A DNA stretch of 64,000 nt, taken from positions 1,511,001 to 1,575,000 of the forward strand of contig CP036424.1 of assembly GCA_007745835.1 (NCBI GenBank), read 5' to 3'. The notes under the pieces are model-generated. The model was not told the DNA's origin, made no database searches, and was given only the letters and a program-made list of their open reading frames with translations. Positions within the stretch are counted from its first letter, which is position 1. Every line of letters starts with the position of its first letter. The DNA is from Planctomycetes bacterium MalM25 (lineage in GTDB: Bacteria; Planctomycetota; Planctomycetia; Pirellulales; Lacipirellulaceae). Below, piece by piece: positions 36,935 through 39,205 of this stretch. The translations under genes were made by a program, and so were the position numbers.

Positions 36935-37189
36935 AGTGAAACTCAAGGAAGTCGGGGTAGAGCGAAGCCCCCAGTGACGTTCTAGGTGTTATCCACTAGC
37001 TAAGCGCTGAGGGGTAGCCTGCTAGCTATTGAGCTCAGCACCTACCAATGTCACATGTGTTGTTGACGATTCCTGGGCAGCACGCGAGTAGACCATTGAC
37101 AGCTGAGCAGCTGTCAGTAGCTTTGTGGTTTCTCAAGCTACTGCCGGTTAGATGAGACTTATGGTAGGTGAGTAACAATGGGCTATTAG
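36935..37189. promoter_or_regulatory. Hairpin-rich leader of the low-GC islet
   Basis: Three consecutive inverted repeats precede the proton-channel gene. The first, 37013-37046, is GGTAG/CTACC outside with TGCT/AGCA and AGCT/AGCT inside. The second, 37097-37116, is a perfect TGACAGCTG-AG-CAGCTGTCA palindrome. The third, 37116-37142, is AGTAGCTT/AAGCTACT. The composition differs from both flanks. This could be a structured leader, an operator or a remnant of a recombination site. I see no Shine-Dalgarno sequence or clear promoter, and no gene. Confidence 0.55.
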
Positions 37190-38212
37190 GTGATCGAAGA
37201 TTACAGGGTCTCTAAGGGCATTACGGGCAAGTCAGTACATTACGACTGCCCAAACTGTCATACGCCGCTAGTCAACCAGCTTGCGAACGCTGGCACGAAC
37301 GACTATTGCCCTGACTGTGGCACACCTCATGTGGTGCCGGGAACGCGTGAACGCGAAGTAGAATCGACTCGTCGCGTGGCAGTGGAGAAAAACCGCGAAC
37401 TAGACCGTAAGGAGAAGCTGGAGCGCTCGCGTGAAGCCGTTCTCAGTCGCGTCGCCAAGCAGAGTAAAAGGGCACGCAAAGTCTCACTTAATCGCGATCC
37501 CTTCATCGAGTGGCTCTTGTACGCCGGTTTCTTGACACTAGTGCTCTTTGTGGTGGCCGGTCGTCATCTAGTCAGCGCAGTCCAATCAGACTCATCGGGG
37601 ATGACCATCGTCATCCTGGTGCTGTTCTCGATCGGCCTCGTGCTAAATCTAATGGGAATCCGCACGCTGCGAAACGAGTACGTCTGTGCTGCGGTCTGTC
37701 TCGACACAATGAAGGTACCTAATGGGATAAAGGAGCTCGTTGAGCTGCCTTCCGCAGGCGTCTTTCACCAGCACCTTAAGGATCTGGCGGCGATCGCGAA
37801 GCACGATAAGAACCTCTCCCAGGATGGCCTTATCTCGTTGCTTTACAGTCAGTTGATGGCGAAATCTCGCATGGTTGACGTTCTGTCGGGAGTGCTGGTT
37901 ACGCTTGGGCTAATCGGCACTGTCGTCGGTCTAATCTCTATGACCGCGGGGCTTAATGAGACTCTCAGCAGTCTTGACGATTCTCAAGACGCCTCCGGGC
38001 TACTCAGTGGTATGCGTGACACCATGTCGGGTCTCAGCACAGCCTTCTACACTACTCTCATTGGGGCTTTCCTGGGAAGTGTCGCGTTGCGTGTCCTGAA
38101 CAACGTTTACACCTCGAACGTAGAGCACCTCGTTTCGTACATCGCTTCGACCGCTGAGGTACGCATTGTGCCCCTGTTGAAGTCAGCGAAACGAGTCAAG
38201 GTAGATGCTTAA
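37190..38212 (+). CDS. MotA/TolQ/ExbB-family proton-channel subunit with zinc ribbon
   Basis: This 340-residue membrane protein opens with a zinc ribbon (C20-x2-C23 and C40-x2-C43, YDCPNCHTP and DYCPDCGTP). A charged coiled-coil-like linker (55-100) and four hydrophobic segments near 106-125, 138-156, 229-250 and 285-303 follow. The last two match the MotA/TolQ/ExbB core: LGLIGTVVGLISM, then a loop, then GMRDTMSGLSTAFYTTLIGAFLGS. Such subunits form a pentamer around a dimeric partner and use ion flow to drive motion or force. The start is GTG at 37190; an upstream ATG is closed by a stop. The gene overlaps its partner by 8 bases. Codon use and G+C (about 52% in 37921-37980, counted by hand) differ from neighbours, which suggests transfer. 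Zorya ZorA is a related defence protein, but subfamily membership is not proven. Confidence 0.85.
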   Translation: MIEDYRVSKGITGKSVHYDCPNCHTPLVNQLANAGTNDYCPDCGTPHVVPGTREREVESTRRVAVEKNRELDRKEKLERSREAVLSRVAKQSKRARKVSLNRDPFIEWLLYAGFLTLVLFVVAGRHLVSAVQSDSSGMTIVILVLFSIGLVLNLMGIRTLRNEYVCAAVCLDTMKVPNGIKELVELPSAGVFHQHLKDLAAIAKHDKNLSQDGLISLLYSQLMAKSRMVDVLSGVLVTLGLIGTVVGLISMTAGLNETLSSLDDSQDASGLLSGMRDTMSGLSTAFYTTLIGAFLGSVALRVLNNVYTSNVEHLVSYIASTAEVRIVPLLKSAKRVKVDA

Positions 38213-39170
38213 GTCACTGGGACCGAACTCTGCTCCAAGCTCGGTAGCCGAGACGTTCGGTGACCTCGTCTTCTGCGCGTTGATTGTGCTCGTTCTATTT
38301 GTGCTAGCGCTTGCGATAGAGGTAAGTCAAAGAGTGCGAGCTGCGGAGGATCCGGTCGATGTGGTGGAGCCGTCCGAAGTCGCCTTGTTATCGCCGGAAG
38401 ATATCGCGGACCTCAGCTCGCAGCTTCAGCTCAAGCAAGCCGCAATCGAAGAATTGCGTGACAAGGTGCGATCTCAGAGCCTTCAGGTATCAAACCAGTT
38501 AGCAGCGTTGGCCGGTGAGCAGCGTTTCACTGGCGCACGCGAACCGGCTTCCTTGTGTATGGCCGTTGATTACCGCAAGGGACTCTACTACTTTGTGCCA
38601 TCCCGTGATCTCGAGCACGCCGACACGAGGTTGTCAGGCGAAACCAGTATCGAATACGCCGTCAGGAAGCGACTTGAACTCACGTCACTAGCAGAAAAGT
38701 CGCTGCGAGGACGTGGCTACAAGATCGACGAAGCCATTTCGCTTTATCGATCATTTTCACAGTACGAAGAGGTGGTCCCCACCGAGGTGAACTACCGTGT
38801 TGAACAGTCCCAGATTGGTGTTACCTACAGCACATGGCTGTCAGATAAAATAAGTTACGGTACAGATTCGCGAGTACGTGACTCGGAAGCCGAAGTAGTA
38901 TCGGCTATTCTTGAAGTATATGAAACACCGGGGCCGCATGAAGAGTCGATGTACCCGATTGTTGCGGTGCATATTCATGAAGATGAGCATGTCTCGGTAG
39001 GCGGAGTCCGACTCTCTGCACGCAACCTGCGAGATATCCTGATTTCGATTTCGGGTCGCGGCGCCATGCTAGACTTATCAGGCCTAGAAGGTTCCGCACC
39101 GGGTTGGTTGGTTGAAGGGGCGCTGACTCCAGCTGGATATATTGGGAAAGTGCCCAAGGCTCCAGAGTGA
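38205..39170 (+). CDS. TolR/ExbD/MotB-like single-pass partner of the proton channel
   Basis: This 321-residue protein has a short cytoplasmic N-terminus and one membrane helix (about residues 20-39, DLVFCALIVLVLFVLALAIEV). D20 sits at its cytoplasmic end, where MotB, TolR and ExbD carry the ion-carrying aspartate. A coiled coil (about 62-105) and a unique domain (110-240) follow. The end, VHIHEDEHVSVGGVRLSARNLRDILISI (255-282), resembles the ExbD/TolR periplasmic fold rather than an OmpA-like peptidoglycan-binding domain. The ATG overlaps the upstream stop (ATGCTTAA), so translation is coupled. G+C is low (43% in 38821-38880 by hand count). No TonB, Pal or flagellar gene is near. The large middle domain is unrecognised and may define its target. 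Confidence 0.8.
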   Translation: MLKSLGPNSAPSSVAETFGDLVFCALIVLVLFVLALAIEVSQRVRAAEDPVDVVEPSEVALLSPEDIADLSSQLQLKQAAIEELRDKVRSQSLQVSNQLAALAGEQRFTGAREPASLCMAVDYRKGLYYFVPSRDLEHADTRLSGETSIEYAVRKRLELTSLAEKSLRGRGYKIDEAISLYRSFSQYEEVVPTEVNYRVEQSQIGVTYSTWLSDKISYGTDSRVRDSEAEVVSAILEVYETPGPHEESMYPIVAVHIHEDEHVSVGGVRLSARNLRDILISISGRGAMLDLSGLEGSAPGWLVEGALTPAGYIGKVPKAPE

Positions 39171-39205
39171 GACACATTGGTCTGTGACACGCGGCGTCTG
39201 TATCT

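What the first reader, a model, noticed from the sequence alone, without database searches (positions are those of the whole stretch)
36935..39205. Low-GC islet with an orphan ion-motive stator pair
Two overlapping genes encode a MotA/TolQ/ExbB-type channel and a TolR/ExbD/MotB-like partner with the membrane Asp (D20). They sit alone between nadE and rlmKL. G+C is about 43-52% in lines I counted, against about 70% in nadE. Known users of such motors (Ton, Tol, Mot, Zorya) normally have specific partners nearby, and none is visible. The partner has an unrecognised middle domain (110-240) and an ExbD-like end instead of an OmpA-like domain. A two-gene, horizontally acquired, proton-driven surface or defence device is plausible.
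Basis: partly seen in the sequence, partly recalled or inferred. Interest (0 to 1): 0.78.

Follow-up and report, generated by a model that had tools for sequence, protein, structure and literature searches.

The report
Acquired two-gene ion-driven membrane motor
A bacterium of the order Pirellulales carries, between two housekeeping genes, an imported pair of genes that should build a small ion-powered rotary motor in its inner membrane; the motor belongs to a little-studied family that resembles the motor of a known anti-virus system but lacks that system's other parts, so its job is an open and testable question.

Summary
A complete two-gene operon (37190-38212 and 38205-39170) fills the 2,271 bp between nadE and rlmKL (G+C 53.6%, window 66.8%). 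In three congeneric genomes the flanking genes adjoin without it (80-554 bp): an insertion. No homologue of the partner appeared in 58 relatives.

Both genes have true relatives. In 75 of 80 related loci a partner with an ExFxD-type helix follows the channel gene; no third gene is shared broadly. The channel gene passes Pfam MotA_ExbB. The partner profile's helix matches ZorB of Zorya (E 4e-4), not TolR/ExbD/MotB. The rest differs: an N-terminal zinc ribbon on a long helix instead of ZorA's C-terminal tail; no detectable OmpA, ExbD, PDZ or VWA domain in the partner; no Zorya effector alongside.

Five such zinc-ribbon pairs were found (4 of 396 genomes searched in the order). Two lie in defence islands with a CARF/RtcR-type sigma-54 regulator; three do not.

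Verdict: a real, horizontally acquired, two-gene 5:2-type stator, a new variant of a known kind. Defence is plausible (about 0.4), not shown. "ExbD-like end" is unsupported; "43-52% G+C" is too low.

The parts
36935..39205 (.). low-G+C insertion between nadE (+, ends 36934) and rlmKL (-, ends 39206)
   Evidence: G+C 53.6% vs 66.8% window; the same junction is 193, 554 and 80 bp in three congeneric genomes; no direct or inverted repeats of 9 bases or more found between its ends
36935..37189 (+). 255-bp leader without a convincing ORF; promoter not identified
   Evidence: a 2-mismatch sigma-54-like site at 37049 is not taken as evidence
37190..38212 (+). subunit A: MotA/TolQ/ExbB-type channel protein, 340 aa, GTG start directly after an in-frame TAG
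   Evidence: Pfam MotA_ExbB 32.1 bits, cut-off 22.9; model pLDDT 86
37247..37318 (+). zinc-ribbon cysteines of A: C20-x2-C23 ... C40-x2-C43
   Evidence: sequence; same CxxC...CxxC layout in L066, L069, L074, L076 and, in another frame, L070
37343..37480 (+). long helix of A, residues 52-97, between zinc ribbon and first membrane helix; cytoplasmic coiled coil inferred
   Evidence: helix: AlphaFold2 model; side of the membrane and coiling inferred from the stator fold
37499..38206 (+). membrane/channel core of A, residues 104-339, with conserved GLIGTxxGL and AFYTTLxGA
   Evidence: invariant or near-invariant columns in 22 rows; Foldseek probabilities 0.96-1.0 to ExbB/TolQ/MotA/PomA/ZorA chains in the first 30 rows, none at E<=0.001
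38205..39170 (+). subunit B: one-helix partner, 321 aa, overlaps A by 8 nt
   Evidence: a partner of this kind follows A in 75 of 80 related loci; model pLDDT 81
38244..38345 (+). membrane helix of B, residues 14-47, with the ETFGDLVF motif
   Evidence: E16, F18, D20, L21, F23 invariant in 19 rows; profile matches chains 8vvn_B and 8qyd_F
38262..38264 (+). codon of Asp20, the expected ion-binding residue
38394..38531 (+). long helix of B, residues 64-109; coiled-coil stalk inferred
   Evidence: AlphaFold2 model
38550..39134 (+). alpha/beta (predicted periplasmic) domain of B, residues 116-310, no family assignment
   Evidence: 10-residue pLDDT means mostly 80-96, 57-65 around residues 221-240; no meaningful Pfam/PADLOC/NCBIfam match; no confident PDB fold match

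Best explanation
The islet is a horizontally acquired, self-contained two-gene operon for an ion-driven inner-membrane rotary complex. By homology five A subunits form a channel ring around two B helices, and ions passing Asp20 of B turn the B dimer (inferred). B carries a long helical stalk and a periplasmic alpha/beta domain that should anchor to or sense the envelope (inferred). A carries five N-terminal zinc ribbons on long helices that should form a crown in the cytoplasm (inferred). The crown would do, from the other end of the protein, what ZorA's C-terminal tail does in Zorya: carry the envelope signal or torque to a nucleic acid or protein in the cytoplasm. The most likely role is an accessory envelope-stress or anti-phage device that works without dedicated neighbour genes. 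Shown here: gene anatomy, family, recurrent pairing, insertion, sporadic spread, protein-level constraint. Not shown: assembly, ion, trigger, target, any defence activity.
For: Insertion: congeners lack it at the same junction; no real P0002 homologue in 58 relatives; class scan: 8 of 397 genomes, own included, with A matches at E<1e-70; zinc-ribbon clade in 4 of 396 genomes of the order, own included. Pairing: partner next to A in 75 of 80 loci; only A and B are shared broadly across neighbourhoods. Motor type: Pfam MotA_ExbB; best named models are ZorA, below the NCBIfam cut-offs; the B profile matches 8vvn_B, Shewanella ZorB, E 4e-4, and 8qyd_F, E 0.0089 (ZorB by recall), with no chain named MotB, PomB, ExbD or TolR among the 41 sequences at E<=10 (the depositors call 8vvn_B 'MotB-related protein'). 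Cytoplasmic crown: zinc ribbon and 46-residue helix; zinc-ribbon rows lie on one side of a 100/100 branch in the A tree and in the B tree. Defence link: L069 and L076 carry CARF/RtcR-PspF-type sigma-54 activators (PADLOC E 5e-160, 2e-158) and OLD/AriA-like ATPases, L069 also a type I methyltransferase; the L053 pair lies about 2 kb, one gene away, from an ABC-3C type pair. Mobility: the L052 pair adjoins a tyrosine recombinase. Constraint: differences are fewest at codon position 2 and most at position 3 in all 20 pairwise comparisons.
Against: No mobile gene adjoins the window's pair. Defence genes mark only 2 of 5 zinc-ribbon loci: 38 neighbour ORFs of the window, L066 and L070 matched a single PADLOC model at E<=1e-10 (mad2, one protein), and that model also rings in the controls. 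No full-length match to the L069 CARF-bearing regulator was found in G000, G537 or G690. The pair-versus-control PADLOC excess (122 models against 8) therefore does not come from these three loci. The wider family in Gammaproteobacteria and Kiritimatiellota keeps recurrent, housekeeping-like neighbours (by eye), which looks resident rather than defensive. Foldseek ranks ExbB/TolQ chains above ZorA for subunit A, and sequence searches with A found no ZorA chain. The partner's periplasmic domain is unassigned. No multimer was modelled.
Confidence: 0.45

Rival explanations
1. A non-defence envelope force device: the pair works on a chromosome-encoded periplasmic or outer-membrane client (cell wall, secretion, surface protein). 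The zinc ribbon is a regulatory input. It was acquired as an adaptive accessory gene pair.
For: Relatives' B subunits carry PDZ-like domains or VWA-type MIDAS motifs (14 of 80 loci; L079 VWA_2 E 2e-4, below the cut-off), which are protein-binding modules; Gammaproteobacteria and Kiritimatiellota members sit among recurrent housekeeping-like neighbours; three of five zinc-ribbon loci have no defence neighbour found.
Against: Patchy presence (4 of 396 genomes in the order), different insertion places, two loci inside defence islands.
Confidence: 0.37
2. A remnant of a larger Zorya-like defence system that lost its effector genes and persists without function.
For: ZorA/ZorB are the closest named relatives; in L069 the pair directly follows a helicase gene and a small gene on the same strand, and L076 has only a 105-aa ORF resembling that helicase's N-terminus (by eye); the A gene of L070 is split between frames.
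Against: Both reading frames are intact in the window; codon-position differences show protein-level constraint; no third gene was seen in all five zinc-ribbon loci (only L069 and L076 share a regulator and an ATPase); no EH_Signature gene (the ZorC-type family, by recall) in the genome.
Confidence: 0.11
3. An extra ExbBD/TolQR-type energiser that plugs into the host's Ton or Tol machinery.
For: Subunit A passes the general MotA_ExbB family and its model matches ExbB and TolQ chains best; the genome holds six other MotA_ExbB proteins.
Against: The B profile matches ZorB and no chain named ExbD/TolR; no ExbD family match; no TonB, TolA or Pal gene beside it by eye; its MotA_ExbB score is the lowest of the seven in the genome.
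Confidence: 0.07

Closest known systems
Zorya defence motor ZorAB (types I and II)
   Same: Two adjacent genes; MotA-family channel; B helix with the FxDL motif, profile hits 8vvn_B (Shewanella ZorAB, PMC11890865) and 8qyd_F (ZorB by recall); a cytoplasmic appendage on A (inferred); two relatives lie in defence islands.
   Different: Appendage is an N-terminal zinc ribbon with long helix, not a C-terminal tail; no detectable OmpA-like domain in B; no Zorya effector gene alongside; NCBIfam ZorA scores 26.1 bits against a cut-off of 100.
Flagellar stator MotAB/PomAB
   Same: MotA-family channel; a B helix with an Asp in a similar setting (one search shows the E. coli MotB N-terminus).
   Different: NCBIfam MotA score 8.6 bits against 340; no MotB plug or OmpA family match; zinc ribbon; no flagellar neighbours by eye.
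ExbBD / TolQR
   Same: Fold of subunit A, ion-motive principle.
   Different: B does not match ExbD/TolR models or chains; no TonB, TolA or Pal linkage seen.
vWA force transducers (PMC12204202, passages read)
   Same: Stator-linked VWA domains, reported in Proteobacteria, Planctomycetes and Verrucomicrobia among others.
   Different: There the VWA sits on a TolA/TonB-like transducer with its own helix; here, in distant relatives, it is fused to the Asp-bearing B subunit, and the window's B has none detected.

Membership tests
MotA/TolQ/ExbB - MotB/TolR/ExbD stator superfamily | A subunit passes the family model | tested here: met
   PF01618 32.1 bits, cut-off 22.9
MotA/TolQ/ExbB - MotB/TolR/ExbD stator superfamily | B subunit with one membrane helix bearing an Asp, encoded next to A | tested here: met
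   D20 in helix 14-47, invariant in 19 rows; adjacent in 75 of 80 loci
MotA/TolQ/ExbB - MotB/TolR/ExbD stator superfamily | 5:2 assembly and ion flow | not testable with these tools
   no multimer prediction or experiment possible
Zorya | A passes the ZorA models | tested here: not met
   NF033915 26.1 bits vs 100, NF033914 11.9 vs 190, NF033917 12.1 vs 500
Zorya | ZorB with OmpA-like peptidoglycan-binding domain | tested here: not met
   no OmpA or ZorB family match for P0002 at E<=1 in Pfam, PADLOC or NCBIfam; the fold search is inconclusive on its own
Zorya | long C-terminal cytoplasmic tail on ZorA | tested here: not met
   A ends at residue 340, directly after its last helix (268-339); the extension is N-terminal
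Zorya | effector genes ZorC/ZorD or ZorE alongside | tested here: not met
   flanks are nadE and rlmKL; no EH_Signature (PF15611) gene in the genome; ZorD and ZorE were not searched genome-wide
Flagellar MotAB | A passes the MotA equivalog model | tested here: not met
   NF005997 8.6 bits vs 340
ExbBD/TolQR | B belongs to the ExbD/TolR family | tested here: not met
   no such match at E<=1 in Pfam or NCBIfam; no chain so named at E<=10 with profile A5
ExbBD/TolQR | linkage to TonB, TolA or Pal | tested here: not met
   neighbours by eye; none seen by eye in the zinc-ribbon loci; no profile search for TonB or Pal was made
ExbBD/TolQR | ExbD-like fold of the B end | tested here: inconclusive
   no confident match, which do not exclude it
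Anti-phage defence system | location among defence genes | tested here: inconclusive
   2 of 5 zinc-ribbon loci yes; neighbours of the other three, window included, gave one match, to mad2
Anti-phage defence system | protection against phage | not testable with these tools
   needs an experiment

The most novel reading that the evidence does not exclude
A two-gene anti-phage rotary motor complete in itself: the periplasmic domain of B senses envelope injury, ion-driven rotation turns the complex, and a pentameric zinc-ribbon crown on A engages invading nucleic acid or stalls a cytoplasmic target directly, with no separate effector gene; it would be a Zorya-like principle with its business end moved to the other terminus of the channel protein.
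Probability: 0.2. Interest if true: 0.85.

Novelty: new variant of a known kind. Interest (0 to 1): 0.5.

Why it matters
Known stator motors each come with a client (flagellum, Ton, Tol, gliding, Zorya effectors). This family keeps the channel core constant and exchanges both ends: zinc ribbon or none on A; PDZ-like, VWA-like or an unassigned alpha/beta domain on B. Its sporadic, two-gene form in Pirellulales makes it directly testable whether an ion-driven motor can act, perhaps against phage, with no effector beyond the motor itself. The window's partner has no Pfam or NCBIfam model, so such pairs are likely to be passed over in annotation.

Tried and rejected
Sigma-54 control of the window's pair: the best site (37049) has 2 mismatches, and the window as a whole has fewer such sites (9) than its shuffles (mean 18.45); dropped. 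Mobile-element ends: no repeat of 9 bases or more between the islet ends. Plasmid and phage carriage: no match for A or B in the plasmid and phage collections; for B none in viral contigs. Zorya proper: rejected by the membership rows. RtcR-type regulator as an obligatory third gene: rejected; in G000, G537 and G690 only partial matches to its sigma-54 activator part, none full-length. Ion type: T244 and T288-T289 are conserved where the E. coli MotA row differs, but I do not call H+ or Na+. No ZorB, MotB, TolR or ExbD chain appears in the rows shown; that is no evidence either way.

Weaknesses of my own steps: profile A6, used, held one row (L073) in a wrong frame; it was corrected in A7, used for the structure. 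Neighbour lists for searches are longest-ORF picks, some antisense to real genes in high-G+C DNA (for example over cinA and rlmKL); for A9 I put cinA and rlmKL themselves in place of those two ORFs and left A and B out, but the L066 and L070 picks are unchanged. One 2,201-aa control ORF was left out of A4 (128 of 129 used). Searches count models, not genes, and give no table per locus; I chose the nine pair loci and the nine control stretches. For the empty site I fetched 8 of the 31 other genomes with a nadE match, chosen because nadE and rlmKL lay near each other; at least G015, G018, G023, G027 and G032 also have them near by coordinates and were not fetched, and in some genomes (for example G007, G009, G013) the genes are apart. 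Gene names of neighbours without a cited family search are by eye. The identity of G942 with the L069 genome and of G537 with SV_7m_r (L070) is inferred from contig coordinates and length.

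Full report
What is there. Between nadE (ends 36934) and rlmKL (minus strand, ends 39206) lie two + strand genes: A, 37190-38212, 340 aa, GTG start, and B, 38205-39170, 321 aa, overlapping by 8 nt. The 2,271-bp gap has 53.6% G+C; the window has 66.8%. GC3 is 0.63 and 0.54 for A and B, and 0.87-0.89 for cinA, nadE and rlmKL. Low-G+C stretches exist elsewhere in this genome (17 of 928 overlapping windows as low or lower), so composition alone would not prove transfer. 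The order Pirellulales is inferred: G942 and G537, 'same order' as the window, correspond to L069 and L070 by contig coordinates and length, and Laterigemmans (L069) is in Pirellulaceae, Pirellulales.

It is an insertion. The same convergent nadE/rlmKL junction measures 193, 554 and 80 bp in the three congeneric genomes, and 2-1,098 bp in five further family members fetched. None of these eight shows a B homologue above chance. In one search, 14 of 59 genomes match at E<=1: the own genome and 13 others, best foreign E 0.05, taken as chance. No end repeats were found.

It is a family. A scan of 392 genomes of the phylum with A alone gave four foreign relatives at E<1e-40; a profile scan of 397 genomes of the class gave ten matches at E<=1e-12, eight of them strong (E<1e-70), own included; a pattern scan of the 84,980-species genome collection gave 125 relatives, of which the best 80 were kept. 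In 75 of these 80 an ORF with an ExFxD-type motif and a hydrophobic stretch follows the A gene. The five exceptions are L101, L130, L131, L137 and L148; in L101, L137 and L148 the A gene ends within 500 bp of the stored end. Clustering of 1,231 neighbour ORFs from 84 loci shows A (75 loci in one cluster) and B (35, 18 and 17 loci in three clusters) as the families shared broadly. The other clusters printed hold 14 loci or fewer and are mostly blocks of neighbours kept within Gammaproteobacteria or Kiritimatiellota, or generic families such as SDR- or UvrA-like genes by eye (45 clusters at most were printed).

Subgroups. The tree of 26 A proteins puts the window with L066 (G690), L069 (Laterigemmans), L070 (SV_7m_r) and L076 (Pirellulaceae) on one side of a branch, 100/100; the B tree of 13 rows does the same, 100/100, with two long branches among its other rows. 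These five share an N-terminal zinc ribbon (in L070 the ribbon and the channel part lie in different frames) and a B of 321-340 aa that aligns without the PDZ insert. L074 also has a ribbon but groups elsewhere. In other Planctomycetota B carries a PDZ-like domain (Pfam PDZ_2, E 8e-5 in L023 and 8e-6 in L024, below the cut-off). In L079 B carries a VWA-like domain (VWA_2 E 2e-4, below the cut-off), and a MIDAS-like motif is found in B of 14 of 80 loci. In the order the zinc-ribbon clade is in 4 of 396 genomes, own included; a fifth match, G672, falls outside the clade.

What kind of motor. A passes Pfam MotA_ExbB; the PADLOC models it matches are all ZorA (best 26.3 bits), and ZorA also leads in NCBIfam (26.1 bits against a cut-off of 100). 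The AlphaFold2 model of A (22-row alignment, pLDDT 86) shows a ribbon, a 46-residue helix (52-97), then the membrane helices. Foldseek finds no match at E<=0.001, but its first 30 rows are ExbB, TolQ, MotA/PomA and ZorA chains with probabilities of 0.96-1.0; the first ZorA chain is rank 30. A sequence profile of A (one of 26 rows in a wrong frame) found MotA chains at E 0.01 and no ZorA chain at E<=1, and A alone found none. The B profile (19 rows) against PDB sequences gives ZorB of Shewanella (8vvn_B, E 4e-4; entry identified in PMC11890865, passages read) and 8qyd_F (E 0.0089), labelled only 'Membrane protein', which I recognise as ZorB from recall. It also finds PDZ proteases (from the PDZ-bearing rows) and, by name, no MotB, PomB, ExbD or TolR chain at E<=10. 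So A is a generic stator channel by fold and B is ZorB-like in its helix. Pairwise scores of the B N-termini to E. coli MotB (mean z 3.55) and TolR (2.25) point the same way, weakly.

What B does outside the membrane is unknown. The model (pLDDT 81) has a long helix and an alpha/beta domain, with no meaningful Pfam, PADLOC or NCBIfam assignment and no confident fold match.

Defence link. L069 and L076 each carry a gene for a sigma-54 activator with a CARF-type N-terminus (PADLOC RtcR_PspF2, E 5e-160 and 2e-158). In L076 it is directly divergent from the pair; in L069 it is divergent from a run of a DEAD-box helicase, a small gene and the pair. Both loci also hold an OLD/AriA-like ATPase gene with an unassigned gene next to it; L069 also has a type I methyltransferase and a UvrD-type helicase. 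[quoted passage not shown] The L053 pair lies about 2 kb, one gene away, from an ABC-3C type gene pair, and the L052 pair beside a tyrosine recombinase. A scan of 136 ORFs of nine pair loci (the pairs themselves included) matched 122 PADLOC models at E<=1e-10; 128 ORFs of nine control stretches matched 8. Against this, 38 neighbour ORFs of the window, L066 and L070 matched one model, mad2, with one protein; mad2 also rings twice in the controls. The excess therefore comes from L069, L076, L053 or the other loci of the set, not from these three. No full-length match to the CARF-bearing regulator was found in G000, G537 or G690.

Function is retained. In all 20 pairwise comparisons within the zinc-ribbon clade (ten for A, with L070 from downstream of its break; ten for B) differences are fewest at codon position 2 and most at position 3, as expected under protein-level constraint; no stop interrupts either window gene.

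Mechanism committed to. By family knowledge (MotAB, ExbBD and ZorAB are 5:2 motors) an A pentamer holds a B dimer and ion flow past D20 turns it. B's periplasmic domain is the envelope end, A's ribbon crown the cytoplasmic end. I put about 0.9 on the stator, 0.85 on horizontal acquisition and 0.4 on a defence or phage-triggered role; the field 'confidence' (0.45) is for the composite statement, whose role is worded as envelope-stress or anti-phage.

Literature. Searches (open-licence library only; one search found no paper) returned none that I recognised, from titles and abstract beginnings, as describing a zinc-ribbon, PDZ or VWA two-gene stator family. PMC12505986 (passages) has no occurrence of 'PDZ' or 'VWA' and groups proteins of unknown function among the non-flagellar stators. 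PMC12204202 (passages) describes separate vWA force transducers near tolQ-like genes. [quoted passage not shown] The Nature paper on the Zorya mechanism (PMC11946911) was not held and is not used.

Noticed in passing
L070:9967-11040: In the Planctomycetes bacterium SV_7m_r genome the zinc ribbon and the channel part of subunit A lie in different frames: a real frameshift or an assembly error.
   Followed up: partly
L078:5290-7214; L116:10441-12491: Two tandem B-like genes, each with the E-x-(F/V)-S-D motif, follow one A gene; possibly a heterodimeric partner.
   Followed up: no
L080:10665-17318; L081:4594-8928; L116:6259-7700: In Rubritalea (L080), a planctomycete (L081) and Oceanococcus (L116) the pair sits with runs of small membrane- or lipoprotein-like genes, and in L080 next to ParA-, TraD- and relaxase-like genes, all by eye: perhaps a larger, mobile multi-gene system.
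   Followed up: no
L075:9167-9712 (FHA); L071:1935-2453; L051:7700-8422; L078:2538-4523: An FHA-domain gene lies beside the pair in Phycisphaeraceae-type loci (Pfam-tested for L075 only, the others by eye), suggesting phosphorylation-linked control.
   Followed up: partly
L091, L096, L102, L103, L106, L109, L111, L117, L118, L138, L145: Proteobacterial relatives whose partner has a VDASGSM-type MIDAS motif; several share neighbours with each other. The L091 partner has no Pfam or NCBIfam hit at E<=0.01.
   Followed up: partly
L210:2829-3384; L213; L215; L216: The nadE-rlmKL junction holds other small ORFs in other members of the family (for example a 146-aa membrane-like one in L216), so it may be a minor insertion hot spot.
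   Followed up: partly
G000:C1:4211261-4211416 (L002); L029; L047; L050: Weak matches to the zinc-ribbon part of A occur in other proteins of this genome and phylum, so the ribbon on subunit A may be a lineage-specific module.
   Followed up: no
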